Assembly (NCBI RefSeq): GCF_026914185.1
Contig: NC_070567.1
Location: forward strand, 3,560,001 to 3,624,000
DNA length: 64,000 nt
Source: Puccinia triticina
Taxonomy: Eukaryota; Basidiomycota; Pucciniomycetes; Pucciniales; Pucciniaceae
Direction of reading: 5' to 3'
A program made the translations under genes and the position numbers. Shown here in pieces: positions 12,153 to 61,242 of this stretch; the stretch's first letter is position 1, and each line of letters opens with the position of its first letter. Under the pieces are notes generated by a model. The model had not been told where the DNA came from, did no database searches, and saw nothing but the letters and a program-made list of their open reading frames with translations.

Positions 12153-12617
12153 GTTGGAATATGCGGGCGCGCAGTGGTACGGCTTGTGACTTTAAACTTG
12201 TTTTCAATGACGTCAACGGGTGTGAAGTCTTCAAATCAAAAGCAGTTGAACGCTACTCCTTGATCCAGTTGACAGTCACCAATTTCCTTTTCCCTCATCT
12301 TGACACCTTCCTTCCAACCACCGGCTAAGTCAAACACCAACTCATAGCGCGGTTCCTTGTCAAGGTCATTAGTCTAGGCGGCCCAATTCTCAGGTTTATC
12401 TTTTTATCTTTCTTTCTCATCTATCCTGTTGACCATGATTAGCCAACTCTTCATTTATTATCTTAGCCCAAAAGTCCTAGTTTTATGTTGTTTTAGGTTC
12501 TCCTGTGTTCTCATCTCAACTTTGTTCCCGTTTCTTTCAGGTAAAAATCCATAATCATTGTTTTCTATTTTATTTTTGTTTTTACTGAAATCAATTTCTT
12601 TATGCCTGAATTTATCA
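12153..12617 (-). repeat. Inverted copy of the 2266-2690 spacer
   Basis: Reverse complement of 2266-2690 with scattered substitutions and small indels. It ends in CTGAATTTATCACATGCTGTAAAC, entering minisatellite exactly as the other copy does. The two copies are 10 kb apart in opposite orientation. Confidence 0.7.
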
Positions 12618-47400: not shown

Positions 47401-50294
47401 TAGCATGAAATCATTCCCATTGCGTGTTGAGATAAAGTGGCAGAAACACCAAAAGATACCCAATTAGGCAATATCTTGAGACTAATCAGACGATAGCAGC
47501 TCCTTTGCGGCATTTCCATACATGAAAGCTATACCAAAATAATCTTTGCAAATGGATGAATATTCTGGTCCCCATATCATGAAATAATCACCATTCCCAG
47601 TTGAGATATGGTGGCAGAAACAGAAAGAAAAGCACAATTCGGTGATATTTTGAGCCTCATGAAACTGTAGCTGCCTCATTTTGGGATTTTCATGGTCAAA
47701 AGCTGACACAAAGTAGTCCCGCAGCATGTTTTATCATAAAGATCAATATAATGAAATCATTCGCATTGCAGGTTGATATACAGTGGCAGAAACACCATAA
47801 AATACCCAATTAGGCAATATCTTGAGACTAATCAGACTATAGCAGCTCCCTTTGGGCATTTCCATACATGAAAGCTAAACCAAAATAACCTTCGCAAATA
47901 GATGAATATTCTGGTCCCAATATCATGAAATAATCACCATTCCAAGTTGAGATATAGTGGCACTTACAGAAAGAAAAGCCCTGCAATTTGGTGATTGTTT
48001 GAGACCCATGAGACTGTAGCTGCCACATTTTGGGTTTTTCATGGTCAAAAGCTGACCCAAATTAATCCCTCAACATTTATTATTATAATGGTATCAATAT
48101 CATGAAATAAATGTTAGCCCCAGTTCAGATACAGTGGCAGAAACACCAAAAGATACCCAATTGTCAGACTATAGCAGCTCCTTTGGGGCTTTTCCACACA
48201 TGAAAGCTATACCAAAATAATCTTTGGAAATGTATCAATATTCTCGTACCAATATCATGAAATGATCACCATTCCTGGTTGAGATATAGTGGCAGAAACA
48301 CAAAGAAAAACCTGATGTGGTGATTCTTTGAGACCCATGAGACTGTAGCTGCCACATTTTGGGTTTTTCACGGGCAAGAGCTGAGCCCCTCAACATGTCT
48401 TATCATAATGGTATCAAGATCATGAAATAATTTGCATTGCGGGTTGAGATACAGTAGCAGAAACACCAAAAAATACCCAATTAGGCAATATTTTGAGACT
48501 AATCAGACTATAGCATCTCCTTTTGGGCACTTCCATACATGAAAGCTAAACTAAAATAATCTTTGGAAATGAATGAACATTTTGGTACAAATATCATGAA
48601 ATAATCACCATTCCTGGTTGAGATATGGTGGCGGAGACAGAATGAAAAGCCCAATTTGGTGATATTTTAAGACTCATGAGACTGTAGCTGCCTCATTTTG
48701 GGATTTTCATGGTGAAGATCTGACCCAAATTAATCTCTCAACAGGTCTTGATATAATGATATCAATATCATGAAATAAATGTTAGCCCCGGTTCAGATAC
48801 AGTGGCAGAAACACCATAAAATACCCAATCAGGCAATATTTTGAGACTAATTAGACTATAGCAGCTCCTTTTTAGGATTTCAATCCATGAACTCTATACC
48901 AAAATAATTTTGGAAATTTATCAATATTCTCGTACCAATATCATGAAATGATCACCATTCCTGTTTGAGATATAGTGCCAGAAACACAAAGAAAAACCTA
49001 ATTTGGTGATTCTTTGAAACCCATGAGACTGTAGCTGCCACATGTTGGGTTTTTCATGGGGAAGAGCTAACCCAAATGAATCTCTCAAAGTCTCTTGTCA
49101 TAATGATATCAATATCATGACATCATTCCCATTGCGGGTTGGGATACAGTGGCAGAAACACCAAAAAATACCCAATTAGGCAATATTTTGAGACTAATCA
49201 GACTATAGCAGCTGCTTTTGGGCATTTCCATACATTAAAGCTATACCAAAATAATCTTTGAAAATGGATACATATTCTGGTACCAATATCATGGAATAAT
49301 CACCATTCCCGGTTGAGATATGGTGGCAGAAACAGAAAGGGAAGCCCAATTTGGTGATATTTTGAGACTCATGAGACTGTAGCTGCCTCATTTTGGGAAT
49401 TTCATGGTCGAGAGCTGACCCAAATTAATCTCTCAATATGCCTTATCATCATGGTATCAATATCATGAAATCATTCCCATTGCGGGTTGAGATACAGTGG
49501 CATAAACACCAAAAAATACCCAATTAGGCAATATTTTGAGACTAATCAGACTACAGCAGCTCCTTTTGGGCATTTCCATACATGAAAGCTATACCAAAAT
49601 AATATTTGGAAATGGATGAATATTCTGATACCAATATCATGAAATAATCACCATTCCTGGTTGAGATATGGTGGCGGAAACACAAAGAAAAACCTAATGT
49701 GGTGCTTCTTTGAGACCCATGAGACTGTAGCTGCCACATTTTTGGTTTTTCAAGGTGAAGAGCTGACCCAAATTAATCTGTCAACATGTCTTGACATAAT
49801 GGTATCAACATCATGAAATAAATGTTAGCCCCGGTTCAGATACAGTGGCAGAAACACCATCAAATACCCAATTAGGCAATATTTTGAGACTAATTAGACT
49901 ATAGCAGCTCCTTTTTGGGATTTTAATCCATGAAATCTAAACCAAAATGATTTTTGTAAATGTATCAATATTCTTGTATCAATATCATGAAATGATCACT
50001 ATTCCTGGTTGAGATATAGTGGCAGAAACACAAAGAAAAACCTAATTTGGTGATTCTTTGAAACCCATGAGACTGTAGCTGCCACATTTTGGGTTTTTCA
50101 TGGGCAAGAGCTGACCAAAATTAATCTCTCAAAATCTCTTATCATAATGATACCAATATCATGAAATCATTCCCATTGCGGGTTGGGATACAGTGGCAGA
50201 AACACCAAAAAATACCCAACTAGGCAATATTTTGAGACTAATTAGACTATAGCAGCTCCCTTTTGGGATTTCAATCCATGAAATCTATACCATA
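47311..50294 (-). repeat. 174 bp tandem satellite, reverse-oriented array
   Basis: About 17 monomers with the same A/B dimer structure. Minus-strand frames at 49203-49391 and 49551-49739 are 348 bp apart. One dimer near 48380 has a deletion (GCTGAGCCCCTCAAC) that also occurs in 59042-59403. The array is broken at 50295 by the H6 insertion. Confidence 0.92.
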
Positions 50295-51323
50295 ATTAAA
50301 AACAGATAATTGCGTGGATATGACTTTTTTTTTTTTGGCAGCAGTCTCCCTATGGAAGCTCCAACCAAAAAAAGTCAAATATCAACGCAATCACCTGTCT
50401 GAAGGCACAATTGCAGGGGAGACGATGATTTGGTTGGAGCCAATCAATACACCCCAGCGGCCTTGGGATATTGCTGGTCTGTGTTGCCTCCTTTTATGTC
50501 ATTTGAAAATGCGCTCAGCATGCCCGTGTCATCTCGCCGCCACACAATCTGTTGCATTTTTCCTAAGTCCGGTACCTGGCTTTTGGTGCCGCTCAGTTTC
50601 CTTTTGTGTCTTGTGCATTTCCACCTGCTAAAACAGGCAGTTCACACTTCCTTTTTTTTCCGTTATCTAAAGAGTCGATGCTCCCAGTCACCAATCAAAT
50701 TTCCTAAATAATAACCTCTTTTTTCCTACATCCTGAAAGCCTGATCTCTTCATTATTCACATTTCTTTATACGGCTTGGCCTCAGTTGCTTTGCCAGTGC
50801 TTTCGTCTGCCCGTGAGAAATACTAGCTATTTTTGTGTTCATGAACTGCTGCATTTGCTTTATTTGTCCCGGTACTGTCTGCTCCATTTGCTTTATTTGG
50901 CCCGGTACTGTTTGCTTTTCCAGTAGTGCTCGTGAATTATGCCTAGGGGCTTTTGTTTTGATCTCCTCAAGCGAATGGGTGCCATTTCTTTTCCCGTTTC
51001 CTTGATCTGCATAAGTCAAGATACTTCTGGTGCTTTTCAATCTATAACCTCGGCTGTGCATGTTACCAAAGCTACATATCCTTGCGGGGGAACGAGCTGG
51101 GCACCAAGAGTTCCCCTCTGTCCATCGAGGCAGCTAAGTGGGTGGCCCTGAGTAATCAAAGCTGAGTAGGGCTCGGACCGACACGGCGGAGCCCGACTCA
51201 TATATCTACCGTTGCTTGTTGTCCCTTTGTATCACATCCTCGTTTTTACTCTTTGTGTCTCTATTACGTTCAGCATTTACATTTGTTCCTCGTCGTCCTT
51301 ATGCCACTCGCGCCATGACACTC
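50295..51323 (+). other. Left part of the H6 insertion, no recognised gene
   Basis: The satellite stops after CTATACCA; AAAACAGATAATTGCG follows. Frames on both strands (50314-50631 plus, 50753-51061 minus) show no known domain. AGGCAGCTAAGTGGG and a TATATCTACC near 51200 might belong to the promoter of the recombinase gene that continues at 57188. I see no Helitron-type TC start at the junction. Confidence 0.4.
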
Positions 51324-51328
51324 AATCC

Positions 51329-52223
51329 TGTTAGATTATGAATATTTACTCATCTCATTATGAATACGCAGCAAATATTTTCAATTCTCACCAGCATCCG
51401 GAAAATACCGATCGAAACCCTAACCCCACTTTCAACCGTTCATCAAAAGCGAATCAAGCTCGCACACCTTACCGGTCTTTTCCTCAAGCGTTTACATCAT
51501 TATACTCGTGAGGAAGAGACTAGTAAGCACATCGACATCACCTCAATCCTCAAAAACCAAGAATATTCAAACTAACAAAACTTTCCTCATCCCTACTTCC
51601 CCTTTTCTCTTTTTCACACCTTCCTATAAAATCAGATATTCATCTCTCTTGTGCGCGTCCCTCAAACATCATCAAAACCAAATCAAAACAATCCCTGCGT
51701 CGCCGCAGGTATGCACATATAACTTTTCTATCATCTATTTATTTACTCATAACCTAATAACTTATTTCTTAATCTTTTGTTCTCTCTTTATGTTGTTTTT
51801 CTCATTTAGGTGTGTTGCTGGAGCATTAAGCTGTGTTGTCGAGAGTCTTCACTTACTTAGGTTAAATCATCATCATCTCAGGTTCGCTATTTTATATTAA
51901 AATTGTTTTTCTTACTTCTTGTGTCGTCATAATAAAAATTACGCGTTTACATCATTATACTCGTGAGGAAGAGACTAATATTCATCTCTCTTGTGCGCGT
52001 CCCTCAAACATCATCAAAACCAAATCAAAACAATCCCTGCGTCGCCGCAGGTGTGTTGCTGGAGCATTAAGCTGTGTTGTCGAGAGTCGTTACTTACTTA
52101 GGTTAAATCATCATCATCTCAGGTGTGTTGCTGGAGCATTAAGCTGTGTTGTCGAGAGTCGTCACTTACTTAGGTTAAATCATCATCATCTCAGGTCACT
52201 TTGTGTTCTTCTAAAAATTTACA
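51329..52223 (+). repeat. Copia 5' LTR (895 bp) with a spliced tandem copy
   Basis: Up to 51881 it matches the 3' LTR. Then a 59 bp linker (51882-51940) is followed by a second copy (51941-52122) and a third, short copy (52123-52194), and the normal LTR end. The second copy lacks 51523-51635 (GTAAGC...AATCAG, 113 bp) and 51709-51809 (GTATGC...TTTAG, 101 bp). Both are exact GT-AG intervals with CTAAC-type branch sequences (51573; AACCTAATAAC near 51747). The joints are GAGACTA/ATATTC at 51977/51978 and CCGCAG/GTGTG at 52050/52051. A TATA box TATAAAAT is at 51625-51632. Confidence 0.93.
51625..51632 (+). promoter_or_regulatory. LTR TATA box
   Basis: TATAAAAT, repeated at 56897-56904 in the 3' LTR. 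It lies just inside the 3' edge of the first presumed intron, so transcripts starting at this TATA would skip that intron, while any starting upstream could splice it. Confidence 0.5.
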
Positions 52224-52241
52224 TGGTAGCGAGAGTTCAAA

Positions 52242-53384
52242 ATGGCCAACAGACCACAATCAGAACAAACGCGAATTGCCAATCTCCAAAAGGCAGCCGC
52301 TAAAAACGCTATAAGTCGAGGAGGACTTGTTTTGGGAACCGATCAAGCACATGCATTCGCAATGTCATCCACCTTAAACAAAATTAAAGGAATCGAAGAC
52401 TTGACGGATGACAACTATTCATCCTGGTCCAAGCAAATTACAGGAGCTCTGAAGATCATCTACTTCGACCCCTATCTTCAAGATAAATATTATGAAGATT
52501 ATGCTGTAGGACCCGAAATCAACAAGATAAATCGCAGATGCATCCTTGAGTTCCTCTTTTCCCGAATGGATGAAGACAACTCCAATCGTTTCCGAGCCGG
52601 GATCCTAGATGTTGAAATAGCAAAAATTCAAGAGATGATTGAACCGACTGAAGAAGAATTAGAAGCCAACCCAGACGCACAAGCAAGACCCGGGAAAATG
52701 GTTCCAGAAATGGAGCACGGACCCGCACACCTATGGACAATCGTTAGAGATTTTCACCAAGCCGACAACGAAGCCAACATATATTTGATAAAATCTAAAA
52801 TTGAAAAGTTTAAACAGGACTACAAGACATCAATCTCCAGCCACATCGACAGTTTCCTTAAGCTGAAAAACGAATTCCTAAATCGAGGTGGTAATTTTGA
52901 CAAATCTTACCTCGGAAGACAATTGCTTCATTCTCTACACAGCAGCCACATGCCAGAAGTCCGTAACATTCTGCGAACTATCAAACCCATCACTAGTCAA
53001 GCAGTTATCGCAGCGCTCAAGCAATATGAGGACGAAAACAGCGAGTTCGATTTCACATCTGGTAGCAAACTCAGCGAAGGCATCAGCAACCTCAAAATGG
53101 CTAACAACACATTCAAACGAGACGCCGACAAACCCAAGTGTACTCCGACAAAATGTATAGGCCCTCACCCAGCGGCCAAATGCTTCAAGCGACCGGAAAA
53201 TGCCAAAGCACAGCGAGAGTGGTTCGAATCACGTGGCCTCAATCCTCCGAAGAACCACGCAAACCTAGCTAGAGCAAGTGAATCTGCCGAGCAAGAACCA
53301 GCTAATGTTCCAGTCAACGTCGCTAGTCATACTAGTACATCAACTGCTCCCAAGAAGAACTATGTATTTGCGGCATACAGTTAA
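52242..53384 (+). CDS. Copia Gag-like polyprotein region, ends at an in-frame TAA
   Basis: 380 aa, beginning MANRPQSEQTRIANLQKAAA 18 bp downstream of the primer-binding site. Residues about 50-75 (LTDDNYSSWSKQITGALK) and later FKQDYKTSISSHIDSFLKLK and RQLLHSLHSSHMPEV are the Gag pattern of Copia (UBN2 type). The zinc-knuckle-like end reads CTPTKCIGPHPAAKCFKRPE. It would form the virus-like particle. The frame ends at TAA 53382-53384 after FAAYS, and the protease follows at once in the same frame. The stop may be decay (a C-to-T change of CAA would suffice) or, less likely, a readthrough site. Confidence 0.9.
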   Translation: MANRPQSEQTRIANLQKAAAKNAISRGGLVLGTDQAHAFAMSSTLNKIKGIEDLTDDNYSSWSKQITGALKIIYFDPYLQDKYYEDYAVGPEINKINRRCILEFLFSRMDEDNSNRFRAGILDVEIAKIQEMIEPTEEELEANPDAQARPGKMVPEMEHGPAHLWTIVRDFHQADNEANIYLIKSKIEKFKQDYKTSISSHIDSFLKLKNEFLNRGGNFDKSYLGRQLLHSLHSSHMPEVRNILRTIKPITSQAVIAALKQYEDENSEFDFTSGSKLSEGISNLKMANNTFKRDADKPKCTPTKCIGPHPAAKCFKRPENAKAQREWFESRGLNPPKNHANLARASESAEQEPANVPVNVASHTSTSTAPKKNYVFAAYS

Positions 53385-56300
53385 GAAGCCAATCTAGTTC
53401 ACCCGAAATTCAAAGCCATATGGGACACGGGAGCTTCTAGTCATATGTTCAACGAATATTCCTTCTTCAAGAACGTCAAGAACACGTCGATACAACCCAA
53501 ATTAATCATGACGGCCGGAGCCAAAGAACTCAAAGTTGAAGCTAGCGGTGATGTCGTCATTAAAGGCGTTACTATTGAACAATTTACTCTTCGAAACTCA
53601 CTCTATATTCCTTCACTTTGCAACAACCTCATCGCCGCCGGAGCATTGAAACAAAAAGGAGCAATAGAAGTAGCCGATCCCAGCGACTCAAAGAAGTTCA
53701 TCATTGCTTTTGACGATCAGACATTCCTTTGTGGCAGATACGTCAACAATTTAATGGTGGTCAAAATCGAGCCGGTTAGCGACATTTCAACTCACTCTTT
53801 GAATGAATCTGAAGCTGACCTGAATGCCTGCAATGTAGATCACAATAGGCTAGGACACTTGAATCCCACTTATCTCAAACGGACTCTTGTGACGAACTCG
53901 GTCCCCAACGTTGATTGCGACACTTGTAAATTGAGTAAATCGACGAAGCTCCCATTCTCCGGCAATAAGCCACTCTCCAAAAACCCTCTAGACAACATTC
54001 ATATAGAACTTAGCGGAATTATAAGAGCACCTTGTATTTTCAACCACTCATACTTCATGTTAATAGTCGATGAATATACTAGAATGGTCTTTATCTACTT
54101 TTTGAAATCAAAAACCAAAGAGGAAGTTTTCAACGCAATCAATTCTTTCATCACCCGAGCCGAACGTCACTGTGAGAAGAAAGTAAAGATGATCACTACG
54201 GATGGGGGGAGCGAGTTTATCAATTCACTTCTTATACCTTTTTGCGAATCACTCGGTATTATTAAAAACACCACGGCGCCATACACCCCCCAACAGAATG
54301 GTCTAGTGGAGCGTTTCATGAGAACAATCTCGACCAAGGCACGGGCTTTAATGCTACAAAGTGGAGTTCCAACTCGATACTGGAGCCTCGCATGTGATGC
54401 AGCTGCATTCATTCAAAACCGTATCTTCAACCGCTCGCGAAATGGACTCCCCGAATTTGCTTATGAGTTATGGTTCGGCCACAAACCCAATCTGAAATAC
54501 ATCCGAACTTTTGGATGCCTCGCCTACATCCACAACCGAAAGGAGCTCATGGACAACAAGTTCAGCGCTACGGCACGGAAAGGTTTCCTCGTTGGATTTG
54601 ATGATTTCAATCAAAATTATCTCATCTTCAATTATGAAAATCAAAAGATCATTAATACTCATGATGTCGCCTTTGATGAGAACACCTTTCCAGAACGCGG
54701 CGATGATGACCCTGATCAATTTATCATTGAGTCGGATGAAAGCGACAACGAAGTGCAAGCACCAAGTCCAAATGAGCATGATAACCGATCCATCTCCAAA
54801 GAATCTGAAGACAACACTTTTGGAAATGTTCCTACCGCCGAGCCATCTACGCCAAACGCCCCCAAAATTAAGGTGATCCCTCCCAAACCGCCTATTACTC
54901 ACCCAGATCACCCTAACTATGTACAACGCTCAACTAGGATCAGTCAACTCCCCAGCCAAGCGTATCTTGCGGAAACTAAATCACAAGCCAACTGAACCAC
55001 ATCCAATGATCCCAAGTACGAGCCAAAACGCTTCAAGGACATCCAAAACTCTGACTTCAAGCAACAATGGATTGAAGCCTGTGACAAAGAAATAGCGGGT
55101 ATGAAATCAAAAGGCGTTTTCAGTCTCACAGTTCGACCTCGTAATCGGAAAGTCATCAAGGGAAGATGGGTGTTTAAGGTCAAGACGTTACCCAATGGCA
55201 GCATTTCAAAATACAAAGCCCGTTTTGTCGCCAAATTTTACACGCAAGAAGAAGGCGTCGATTACGATCAGACCTTTTCGCCTACAGGGAAGCCATCTTC
55301 TCTCCGACTAATTGTGGCGCTCGCTTCGCGGAACAACTGGGAAATTGAGCAAATGGACGCCGTCGCCGCCTTCCTCAACAGTGATCTCGATGAAGAGATT
55401 TATCTTGAGCAACCCGAAGGATTCAAGCAAGGGGGTAAAGACAAAGTATGGAAACTTCATAAATCCATATACGGTTTGAAGCAATCTGCCCGCCTATGGC
55501 ATTTGGAAGTGGAAAAATATCTGAATCTCATTGGTTTCAGAAAGACCGAAGCCGACTCCTGTGTTTTTTATCGATCAAGAAACAACAAAGAAAGTATAAT
55601 TTATTTGCACGTTGACGACATGATCATTACCGGCAATGAAATTTCTTCCGTCAAAGCCGAAATCAAGCAAAAATGGGCTATGGAGGATTTGGGAATTGCG
55701 AAGTTCGCCGTTGGCATTGAAATTGAGCGCGATGGACACGGCAACTACTCACTTCATCAACAAGGGATGATCCAGAATGTCCTGGAAAAATTTGACATAG
55801 AAAATTGTAAGCCTGCCAGTACCCCTTTTGGTTACAACGTCAAGCTTGTCAAATCTACGGAAAAAGAATCTCTGGAATTCGTCAAGATAAATCAGCGGTA
55901 TCAAAAAGCAATAGGATCCTTAATGTATATCGCCATCTGCACCAGGCCGGACATAAGTTTTGCTGTTGGAGTCTTATCTCGATTCCTGGAGAAGCCAAAT
56001 CAAAAGCATTGGGACGCATTCATTCACGTCCTGCAATACCTCAAGGGAACAATTTCTCTAAAAATTGTCTATCAATCCGACAGAGGTGATTTGTCTGCCA
56101 ACCCTGGATGGGCTTTTCCTGAAATAGCCAGCGACGCGGATTGGGCCGGTGACAAATCTAGTTTGCGGTCAACAACGGGATATGTCTTTAAATTCATGGA
56201 CAGCGCGATCAGCTGGCGAAGTCGCTTGCAACCAACTGTTGCATTATCATCGACGGAGGCGGAATATCAAGCCATAACCAAAGCGGGACAGGAAGCCCTA

Positions 56301-56606
56301 TGGCTTGCAAAATTAATGAGACAACTAAACATCCCAATCAAAACTCCGCTTGAAATGATTTGCGACAACCTCAGCGCTATTCACCTCGCCCAGAACCCGG
56401 TACACCACGGACGCGTCAAACATGTTGCTATAGAACACCTTTGGATACGGGAACACGTTCAGGCCGGCACATTCAAGATGAAACACGTCTACACCTCAAA
56501 TATGATCGCCGACATTCTCACCAAGAATCTTGGAAAATCCCCCTTCATCAAATTTTGCGACATGATTGGATTGAAAGATGCTGTTCAAATTGAGGGGGAC
56601 TGTTAG
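53385..56606 (+). pseudogene. Copia Pol: protease, integrase, reverse transcriptase, RNase H, one in-frame stop
   Basis: Same frame as Gag. Protease: WDTGASSHMF (53421 on). Pre-integrase zinc motif: HNRLGHLNP and CDTCK. Integrase: IHIELSG, TDGGSEF and NGLVERF; the usual first Asp (HxDLSG) is Glu here. TGA at 54993-54995 follows SQAN; a C-to-T change of CGA could explain it. Then reverse transcriptase: QWIEACDKEI, GVDYDQTFSP, YGLKQSARLWH, and LHVDDMIITG. RNase H: SDADWAGDKSSLRSTTGY, SSTEAEYQAI, and NMIADILTKNL. It ends at TAG only 6 bp into the 3' LTR. With two stops (with Gag's) the copy is probably dead, but the rest is well preserved. Confidence 0.93.
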
Positions 56607-57182
56607 ATTATGAATATTTACTCATCTCATTATGAATACGCAGCAAATATTTTCAATTCTCACCAGCATCCGGAAAATACCGATTGAAACCCTAACCCCA
56701 CTTTCAACCGTTCATCAAAAGCGAATCAAGCTCGCATACCTTACCGGTCTTTTCCTCACGCGTTTACATCATTATACTCGTGAGGAAGAGACTAGTAAGC
56801 ACATTGACATCACCTCAATCCTCAAAAACCAAGAATATTCAAACTAACAAAACTTTCCTCATCCCTACTTCCCCTTTTCTCTTTTTCACACCTTCCTATA
56901 AAATCAGATATTCATCTCTCTTGTGCGCGTCCCTCAAACATCATCAAAACCAAATCAAAACAATCCCAGCGTCGCCGCAGGTATGCACATATAACTTTTC
57001 TATCATCTATGTATTTACTCATAACCTAATAACTTATTTCTTAATCTTTTGTTCTCTCTTTATGTTGTTTTTCTCATTTAGGTGTGTTGCTGGAGCATTA
57101 AGCTGTGTTGTCGAGAGTCTTCACTTACTTAGGTTAAATCATCATCATCTCAGGTCACTTCGCGTTCTTCTAAAAATTTACA
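56601..57182 (+). repeat. Copia 3' LTR (582 bp)
   Basis: One simple copy, without the duplication seen in the 5' LTR. It keeps both GT-AG intervals at 56795-56907 (113 bp) and 56981-57081 (101 bp). CACGCGTTTACATC here matches the start of the spliced copy in the 5' LTR (ACGCGTTTACATC), whereas the first copy of the 5' LTR has CAAGCG. Confidence 0.95.
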
Positions 57183-57187
57183 AATCC

Positions 57188-59041: not shown

Positions 59042-59403
59042 TAATCTTTGGAAATGTATCAATATTCTCGTACCAATATCATGAAATGATCACCATTCCT
59101 GGTTGAGATATAGTGGCAGAAACACAAAGAAAAACCTGATGTGGTGATTCTTTGAGACCCATGAGACTGTAGCTGCCACATTTTGGGTTTTTCATGGGCA
59201 AGAGCTGAGCCCCTCAACATGTCTTATCATAATGGTATCAATATCATGAAATCATTTGCATTGCGGGTTGAGATACAGTGGCATAAGCACCAAAGAATAC
59301 CCAATTATGCAAAATTTCAAGACTAATCAGACTATAGCAGCTCCTTTTGGGCATTTCCATACATGAAAGCTATACCAAAAGAATCTTTGAGAATGGATGA
59401 ATA
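59042..59403 (-). repeat. 174 bp satellite between H6 and H2
   Basis: Two monomers, almost identical to 48219-48580, including the same internal deletion near 59205. This suggests a local duplication before the insertions. Confidence 0.9.
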
Positions 59404-60192: not shown

Positions 60193-61242
60193 CAATGTCG
60201 GGTTCAACTCATTTTGGGCTAATGTTTGAGGTGCTGCTAGGTGAGTCTTTTGTTTTTGTTTTTGCGCGCATCGACCAGCGTCATCTGATGGGACTCGTCG
60301 TCGATCTTCTCTTTGCCCTGACTGGCCTCCCTGCTTCTCCGGTTCCCAAAGATCCCGTTCAGCCTTGTCCCTCTTCCAAGCCCCCCAGCGCCCTTCCGCC
60401 AGTCATTGTGTTCTTCCGCCGATCCAATGCTTGCACTCGGCCTTGACGTTGGCCAACACAATCATCTTGGCAATTGTCCACCACGCACCGCGCCTTCGCA
60501 CTCGGTAAGCTCCATTGGCTCCTGGGAGTCGAGCCGGTGACTGTTTTCAGTCTCTATCGCGGCGATGAATCATGTGAACAAGGATCTCAAGGGTGATGGG
60601 GAGAACTTGGGTTTAGCATTGGGCCTCAAAAAAGACAGGTGAGGCGACATTGGTAAAGTCTGCAGGCCATCCAATTCCTCTGTTTTATTGTTCAGTACTG
60701 GAATTCCTGGTGGCCGCATTGCAAAATCCTGCAGCCTTCTTCGAATATTCTTTTTGCCCCACACCACCAGCACCAACAGAACGGCCGCTTTGGGGCGCCG
60801 TTTGCAGCCGACGCCGCGTGTCGTGAACTTGCTGTGGCACGAATGGACGAGCGGACCTATGGAGATGTTGGACATGAAGGGCGTGGCGGACGACAGGATG
60901 GACTTGATCCGGCCGCACATCGAGCGCGCCATGGCGTTCATCGAGGCCTGTCGCGTCGCCGGGGGAAATGTGCTTGTGCATTGCCTCGTCGGCGTCAGTC
61001 GCAGCGCCTCCATCGTCATTGCACACGTCATGAAACATTGCCGGCTCGACCTCATGTCCGCGTACCTCATGGTCCGCTCCCGCAGACTCAACATCCTCCT
61101 TCAGCCAAACCACCTCTTCATGTGGAGCATCAAACGGCTCCAAAACGACTTGGTCGCCTCCGCCGCTGCCAATGCTTGTACCTACAGGCCCATTAATTCC
61201 AGATTAGTCATGAAAGCTGTACAATCATTTTACGCAATTTAA
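60193..61242 (+). pseudogene. Pps1-like dual-specificity phosphatase fragment in H2
   Basis: Second copy of the block at 25439-26490. The frame 60688-61242 gives VVNLLWHEWTSGPMEMLDM, the signature VHCLVGVSRSASIVIAHVMK and LNILLQPNHLF. Compared with H1, differences include K-to-E in IKRAMAF, K-to-N in GGKVLVHC and T-to-M in LDLTSAY; the key Cys and Arg are kept. The shared block continues to 61735. Two different Helitrons carrying it means either one captured from the other or both descend from one capture. The N-terminal part is missing, as in H1. Confidence 0.8.

What the first reader, a model, noticed from the sequence alone, without database searches (positions are those of the whole stretch)
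51329..52223. An LTR carrying a spliced copy of itself
The 5' LTR of the Copia element contains a second copy of LTR sequence in which two intervals are missing. Both missing intervals, 51523-51635 and 51709-51809, are still present in the first copy and in the 3' LTR. Each begins GT (GTAAGC, GTATGC), ends AG, and has a CTAAC/CTAAT-like branch sequence; the joints are exact. The simplest reading is that LTR RNA was spliced and then reverse-transcribed back into the LTR during replication, perhaps by template switching. The spliced copy matches the 3' LTR variant (ACGCGTTT) and not the adjacent first copy, which fits a separate RNA donor. Introns inside an LTR, and their removal fixed in DNA, would be an unusual retrotransposon feature.
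Basis: partly seen in the sequence, partly recalled or inferred. Interest (0 to 1): 0.88.

Follow-up and report, generated by a model that had tools for sequence, protein, structure and literature searches.

The report
Retrotransposon LTR rewritten from spliced RNA
A family of jumping genes carries two introns inside its terminal repeats and, beside them, an intron-free copy of the same stretch that seems to be re-made from spliced RNA again and again, which would let an RNA-copied element keep introns that it should normally lose.

Summary
In the host genome (G000, unnamed, 122.8 Mb) I compared 53 LTRs with the order U3 - A (exon 1, intron 1, exon 2, intron 2, exon 3) - A-rich spacer - B (spliced exons) - tail. 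The intron-1 gap is GT..AG in 49 of 53. In 49 of these LTRs, forming 21 groups, A exons differ by a median of 34% between LTRs, while A and B of one LTR differ by a median of 1.6%; own A and own B are sisters in 21 of 21 group representatives. So B is recurrently copied from A's spliced RNA. Inferred mechanism: strong-stop cDNA from the spliced 5' leader is joined to the RNA 3' end, while A is inherited unspliced from the 3' LTR. A conserved 21-bp hairpin pairs U3 with the intron-1 donor (96.4% of 840 cells); it can form only where U3 is transcribed, i.e. at the 3' end, which would explain why only the 5' copy is spliced. It does not explain intron 2. No RNA data were available. I found nothing like it in ten literature searches.

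The parts
51324..51328 (.). target-site duplication AATCC, left
   Evidence: read; right copy 57183-57187
51329..51485 (+). U3 of the 5' LTR, up to the presumed start site
   Evidence: D1; the end is set by where A-B homology begins, no RNA evidence
51468..51488 (+). left arm of the hairpin
51486..51522 (+). exon 1 of copy A
51507..51527 (+). right arm of the hairpin: end of exon 1 and intron-1 donor GTAAG
51523..51635 (+). intron 1 (GTAAGC..CTAAC..CAG)
   Evidence: exact gap in B
51636..51708 (+). exon 2 of copy A, ending in a 5-bp stem CTGCG/CGCAG
51709..51809 (+). intron 2 (GTATGC..CTAAT..TAG), holds two ATGs
51810..51881 (+). exon 3 of copy A
51882..51940 (+). spacer; begins GTTCGC (proposed donor of a third intron), holds AATAAA 51931-51936
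   Evidence: donor and poly(A) roles inferred
51941..51977 (+). copy B: exon 1'
51978..52050 (+). copy B: exon 2', joined exactly to exon 1'
52051..52194 (+). copy B: exon 3 twice (52051-52122, 52123-52194)
52195..52223 (+). tail (end of U5) of the 5' LTR
52224..52235 (+). presumed primer binding site TGGTAGCGAGAG
   Evidence: read; also behind other 5' LTRs; tRNA not tested
52242..56606 (+). copia gag-pol region, three ORFs in one frame (52242-53384, 53445-54995, 55101-56606) parted by stops
56601..57182 (+). 3' LTR, short form: U3, exon 1 (56758-56794), intron 1 (56795-56907), exon 2, intron 2 (56981-57081), exon 3, tail; no spacer, no B

Best explanation
The LTR holds an intron-bearing leader (A) and a processed copy of it (B), and B is recurrently re-made from A through spliced RNA, probably at or near every replication cycle. 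Shown: the layout, the intron removal in B, the joint evolution of A and B in 21 groups, the conserved hairpin. Inferred: (1) transcription starts at exon 1 of A in the 5' LTR and the leader is spliced (introns 1 and 2, and a third intron that begins at exon 3|GT and removes the spacer and old B); (2) the RNA ends a little way into exon 1' of the 3' LTR, behind the A-rich signal, so that a short stretch of exon 1 is the terminal repeat R; (3) minus-strand strong-stop cDNA from the spliced 5' end transfers to that 3' end, giving U3-A(unspliced)-spacer-B(spliced)-tail, which is copied to both LTRs; (4) in the 3' copy a hairpin of U3 with the exon-1 end hides the intron-1 donor, whereas the 5' transcript lacks the U3 arm and is spliced. 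The introns so lie in a part of the LTR that is inherited from the unspliced 3' end.
For: Intron-1 gap GT..AG in 49 of 53 LTRs, unambiguous in 47; intron 2 in 47 of 50. A-B divergence median 1.6% against 34% between LTRs in 49 LTRs; at 12175 site comparisons where group representatives differ in A, both Bs follow their own A in 91.5%; own A and B sisters in 21 of 21 representatives. In 7 elements only 0-4 A-B differences of about 190 sites are common to both LTRs. By spacing and strand, 10 elements have B in both LTRs, so it is made before integration. B begins at the same exon-1 point throughout, never with the hairpin's U3 arm. AATAAA within 25 nt before B in 34 of 53. Exon 3 is followed by GT[TC]NG[CT] in 50 of 53 (the motif searched). 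L101 has A-spacer-B-spacer-B, as expected if the third intron is not removed. Hairpin: 96.4% of 840 cells paired, 43.0-54.5% when slid; one pair is CG in 26 and UA in 14 rows; window 3' copy z -8.75, without the U3 arm -0.23. B has 3 ATGs where 61.2 are expected, intron 2 has 41 against 17.6.
Against: No RNA evidence for start, splicing or poly(A) site. Intron 2 is kept in A too, but its donor shows no end-specific pairing (0.58 and 0.58). The intron-1 donor pairs above 0.9 in only 28 of 40 U3-including RNAs and in 8 of 40 start-site RNAs as well. Against shuffles the hairpin's number of pairs with two-sided change (3 against 2.1, 142 of 500 reach it) and of pair types (15 against 15.1) is not raised, since the right arm hardly varies. 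The second exon 3 of B should be older than the first and is not (60 against 58 differences). Intron 1 is also ATG-poor (2 against 12.4), so the ATG pattern is not simply exon against intron. In L030 and L084 B keeps the last 26 and 18 nt of intron 1, joined behind AT instead of AG. Two elements have no B in either LTR (L079/L080, L105/L106), so B is not needed in every cycle.
Confidence: 0.68

Rival explanations
1. Occasional re-capture: B is usually inherited with the LTR, is often lost by recombination between like exons of A and B, and is regained now and then by a strand transfer from a spliced leader. Same chemistry, low frequency.
For: Short LTRs without spacer and B are common: 23 of those read, in the combinations that A x B recombination gives (both introns kept 13, only intron 1 kept 8, none kept 2, only intron 2 kept 0). 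Two elements are short in both LTRs.
Against: A-B divergence at birth is 0-4 of about 190 sites in 7 elements, and no A/B difference is shared by more than two elements in cluster 10 (8 elements), so B is young almost everywhere.
Confidence: 0.17
2. One ancient capture of a spliced leader; since then B is inherited in DNA and kept like A by gene conversion or template switching between the exon copies.
For: The order of parts is the same in all groups, as expected of one origin; A and B exons are long enough to recombine, and short forms show that they do.
Against: Needs conversion in 21 of 21 groups that never carries an intron into B and never leaves old differences. L101 and the donor-exact odd joints of L030 and L084 look like RNA processing.
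Confidence: 0.11
3. One reading: a single template switch onto spliced LTR RNA in this element.
For: Exact joints; A and B of this element differ at one exon-3 site in both LTRs.
Against: The layout is shared with dozens of LTRs in other groups.
Confidence: 0.03
4. Ordinary deletions in a duplicated LTR, without splicing.
For: Intron 2 has AGGT at both ends, so that gap alone could be a short-repeat deletion.
Against: The intron-1 gap has no such repeat and is GT..AG in 49 of 53, although the intron sequences differ between groups.
Confidence: 0.01

Closest known systems
Ty1/copia LTR retrotransposons
   Same: gag, integrase before RVT_2 reverse transcriptase, TG..CA LTRs, 5-bp target duplication
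   Different: usual LTRs hold no introns and no processed copy of their own leader (recalled)
Intron-bearing LTR retrotransposons: Ogre, EVADE
   Same: LTR retrotransposons with functional introns (PMC12786077, passages seen)
   Different: there the introns serve subgenomic RNAs of the coding region; here they lie in the LTR leader and a spliced copy is stored beside them
Retroviruses with a short R behind a U3 poly(A) signal (MMTV R 15 nt; signal about 20 nt before the start site in some)
   Same: poly(A)-like signal directly before the presumed R (PMC12789967, passages seen)
   Different: here presumed start and poly(A) site lie in two different copies of exon 1 inside one LTR
Retroviruses with a splice donor in R, e.g. 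HTLV-1 and foamy viruses (recalled)
   Same: donor in the transcribed part of the LTR
   Different: no complete intron inside the LTR and no stored spliced copy
Penelope-like elements
   Same: retroelements that can move intron-containing sequence (PMC3846280, passages seen)
   Different: another class of element; the paper discusses antisense or unspliced templates

Membership tests
Ty1/copia | copia-type gag and RVT_2, integrase upstream of reverse transcriptase | tested here: met
   Retrotran_gag_2, rve, RVT_2 in this order
Ty1/copia | LTRs TG..CA, 5-bp target duplication | tested here: met
   TGTTAG..TTTACA at both ends, AATCC on both sides
Ty1/copia | primer binding site for a host tRNA next to the 5' LTR | tested here: inconclusive
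   TGGTAGCGAGAG at 52224, repeated behind other 5' LTRs; no tRNA compared
Ogre/EVADE-like intron-bearing retrotransposons | intron in the internal coding region used for subgenomic RNA | not tested
   only LTR introns were examined
Short-R retrovirus type of LTR | poly(A) signal just upstream of a short R | tested here: inconclusive
   AATAAA within 25 nt before B in 34 of 53; RNA ends unknown
Penelope-like elements | Penelope-type RT with GIY-YIG endonuclease, pseudo-LTRs | tested here: not met
   RVT_2 and rve instead, true LTRs with 5-bp TSD

The most novel reading that the evidence does not exclude
An LTR retrotransposon that keeps introns through RNA-based replication: its LTR encodes an intron-bearing leader inherited from the unspliced 3' end, while in each generation the spliced 5' leader is written into the same LTR as a disposable copy that supplies R and U5. 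A hairpin whose left arm lies upstream of the start site makes the same sequence spliceable at the RNA 5' end and protected at the 3' end.
Probability: 0.42. Interest if true: 0.95.

Novelty: new variant of a known kind. Interest (0 to 1): 0.85.

Why it matters
Introns are expected to vanish from anything copied through spliced RNA. A family that has kept LTR introns across many diverged groups, and stores the spliced leader beside them, would be a DNA record of splicing and of first-strand transfer in each lineage, and would suggest how a retroelement can have cap-proximal introns without losing them. The hairpin makes a sharp, testable claim about why identical sequences at the two ends of one RNA are treated differently by the splicing machinery.

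Tried and rejected
Rejected: a single event in this element; ordinary deletion; old B with separate descent. The order of intron loss in short LTRs was first taken as support for strand transfer into A exons and then dropped, because A x B recombination gives the same set and within-element cases exist (L077 short, L078 full). The prediction that the second exon 3 of B is older failed. A parent with an AG acceptor for the odd joint of L030 was sought: 14 of 14 sites found read TTTAT. The exon-1/donor pattern had 0 matches in viral contigs. The host name was not established: 18 contigs and size suggest a rust fungus to me, which is inference; the P. triticina paper (PMC9927501, passages) did not settle it. 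Literature: ten full-text term searches listed nothing that I recognised as introns kept in an LTR beside a spliced copy; I saw listings, and passages of four papers. Subscription papers and preprints are not held.

Full report
Observation. The 5' LTR is 895 bp (51329-52223); the 3' LTR is 582 bp (56601-57182), has both intervals and no second copy. AATCC flanks the element. The ORFs carry copia gag, integrase and RVT_2 domains.

Anatomy. I call the first copy A (exon 1, intron 1, exon 2, intron 2, exon 3) and the second B (exons 1', 2', 3', 3''). Between them lies a 59-bp spacer with AATAAA directly before B. A-B homology begins at or within a few bases of ACGCG in nearly all rows, and the pyrimidine-rich U3 arm upstream of it in A was not seen before B, as expected if B begins at an RNA 5' end.

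Genome. Searches with the 5' LTR, the 3' LTR and part of B gave 47, 83 and 57 matches (lower bounds by the tool's own word). The exon-1 end plus donor occurs 99 times with up to 2 mismatches, the reversed control pattern 0 times (at least three of the 2-mismatch hits are spliced copies). I fetched L001-L110, many covering the same place, and took the 53 LTRs with both A and B for a spliced self-alignment (recounted). The first gap is GT..AG in 49 of 53 (not L030, L068, L073, L084), without shift ambiguity in 47 of the 49. The second is GT..AG in 47 of 50 (not L006, L008, L082); L051 (B cut short), L073 (A damaged) and L096 (A itself lacks intron 2) show no second gap. I saw no B with a whole intron. 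By spacing and strand, ten elements have B in both LTRs (L009/L010, L013/L051, L014/L021, L015/L016, L019/L023, L066/L067, L071/L072, L073/L074, L075/L076, L081/L082), two in one LTR (window element; L077/L078) and two in neither (L079/L080, L105/L106).

Joint evolution. For 49 LTRs (L020, L051, L071, L073 left out as damaged or cut) the A exons form 21 groups at 10% divergence. Between LTRs A differs by a median of 34%; A and B of one LTR by a median of 1.6%, at most 7.4%. Own A is the nearest or tied nearest A of B in 30 of 49; in the other 19 the nearest A belongs to another LTR of the same group, as expected if A and B come from different parental LTRs. Among 21 representatives own A and own B are sister tips in 21 of 21. 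In 7 elements the A-B differences common to both LTRs, hence present at birth, number 2, 1, 0, 0, 0, 2 and 4 of about 190 sites. In cluster 10 (8 elements) some A-B differences, mostly C/T, are shared by two elements, none by more. B is thus young in each lineage and copied from a spliced form of A.

Mechanism. The simplest route is first-strand transfer. Strong-stop cDNA from a spliced 5' leader ends at the start of exon 1. If the RNA ends a few bases into exon 1' in the 3' LTR, the cDNA end fits that RNA end, and transfer gives U3-A-spacer-[spliced leader]-tail, which plus-strand synthesis copies to both ends. Spacer and old B must leave the 5' leader, or the LTR would grow. A GT[TC]NG[CT] follows exon 3 in 50 of 53 (the motif was the search term, not found in L051, L093, L098), and L101 has A-spacer-B-spacer-B: this fits a third intron that is usually removed. 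Exon 3 is doubled in B with exact edges in 41 of 53; its origin is unexplained, as the expected age order was not found (58 and 60 differences).

Why A keeps its introns. The end of U3 and the end of exon 1 with GTAAG form an inverted repeat. Of 42 loci folded 40 show it; L090 and L103 do not and were left out of the alignment. On 40 sequences 96.4% of 840 cells pair, against 43.0-54.5% with slid partners; three pairs have two-sided changes, one of them CG in 26 and UA in 14. Shuffles are exceeded for cells paired, cells changed on both sides and covariation score (0 of 500 each), not for number of pairs with two-sided change (142 of 500) or pair types (383 of 500). The window's 3' copy folds with z -8.75, the 5' copy -6.69; without the U3 arm z is -0.23, and around B +1.12. 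An RNA that starts at exon 1 lacks the U3 arm, so the donor would be free at the 5' end and buried at the 3' end (mean pairing 0.62 and 0.89). Intron 2's donor shows no such difference (0.58, 0.58), and L096 has lost intron 2 from A. A DNA-level role of the inverted repeat cannot be excluded.

Use of the leader. Over 21 representatives B has 3 ATGs where 61.2 are expected from base shuffling; intron 1 has 2 against 12.4, intron 2 41 against 17.6, the spacer 8 against 11.7. The spliced leader looks like a translated 5' UTR, and splicing of intron 2 removes upstream ATGs; the low count in intron 1 is not explained by this.

Short forms. Of the LTRs that I read, 23 lack spacer and B: both introns kept in 13 (L003, L037, L044, L053, L079, L080, L086, L087, L103, L105, L106, L108, L109), only intron 1 in 8 (L007, L046, L061, L062, L077, L089, L102, L110), none in 2 (L065, L070), only intron 2 in 0. 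L027, L039, L043, L083, L085, L088, L090 and L095 are interrupted or damaged and were left out. Recombination between like exons of A and B gives this set, so it does not test the transfer model; the elements short in both LTRs show that a short form can also pass through a cycle.

Novelty. Ten full-text searches listed nothing that I recognised as this arrangement. The element is a copia retrotransposon; the LTR layout is a new variant as far as these searches go.

Noticed in passing
window 49000-50296 and 59048-59380: Tandem array of a 174-bp (348-bp) unit on one side of the element, with related copies on the other side.
   Followed up: no
window 60688-61242 (+): ORF with HCLVGVSRS, resembling the HC-x5-R signature of dual-specificity phosphatases (recalled, not searched).
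   Followed up: no
L030, L084 (copy B): B keeps the last 26 or 18 nt of intron 1, joined exactly at the exon-1 donor but behind AT, not AG; no AG-bearing relative found for L030.
   Followed up: partly
L101: LTR with A-spacer-B-spacer-B, and exon 3 doubled in A as well.
   Followed up: partly
L075, L076: A run of 13 A stands directly before B, possibly a poly(A)-tail remnant.
   Followed up: no
L008, L027, L089: LTRs hold nested inserts with inverted ends, MITE-like.
   Followed up: no
L004, L005 (G000 C10:1937221-1943314, minus): One LTR is split in exon 3 by about 5.2 kb, with a 6-bp overlap of the two parts that could be a target duplication; B there has three exon-3 copies.
   Followed up: no
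window 51694-51708 and relatives: A 5-bp stem ends exon 2 directly at the intron-2 donor in 28 of 31 distinct sequences, with CTGCG/CGCAG replaced by CTGCA/TGCAG in some.
   Followed up: partly
window 52242-56606: gag-pol of this copy is broken by stops into three ORFs of one frame.
   Followed up: no
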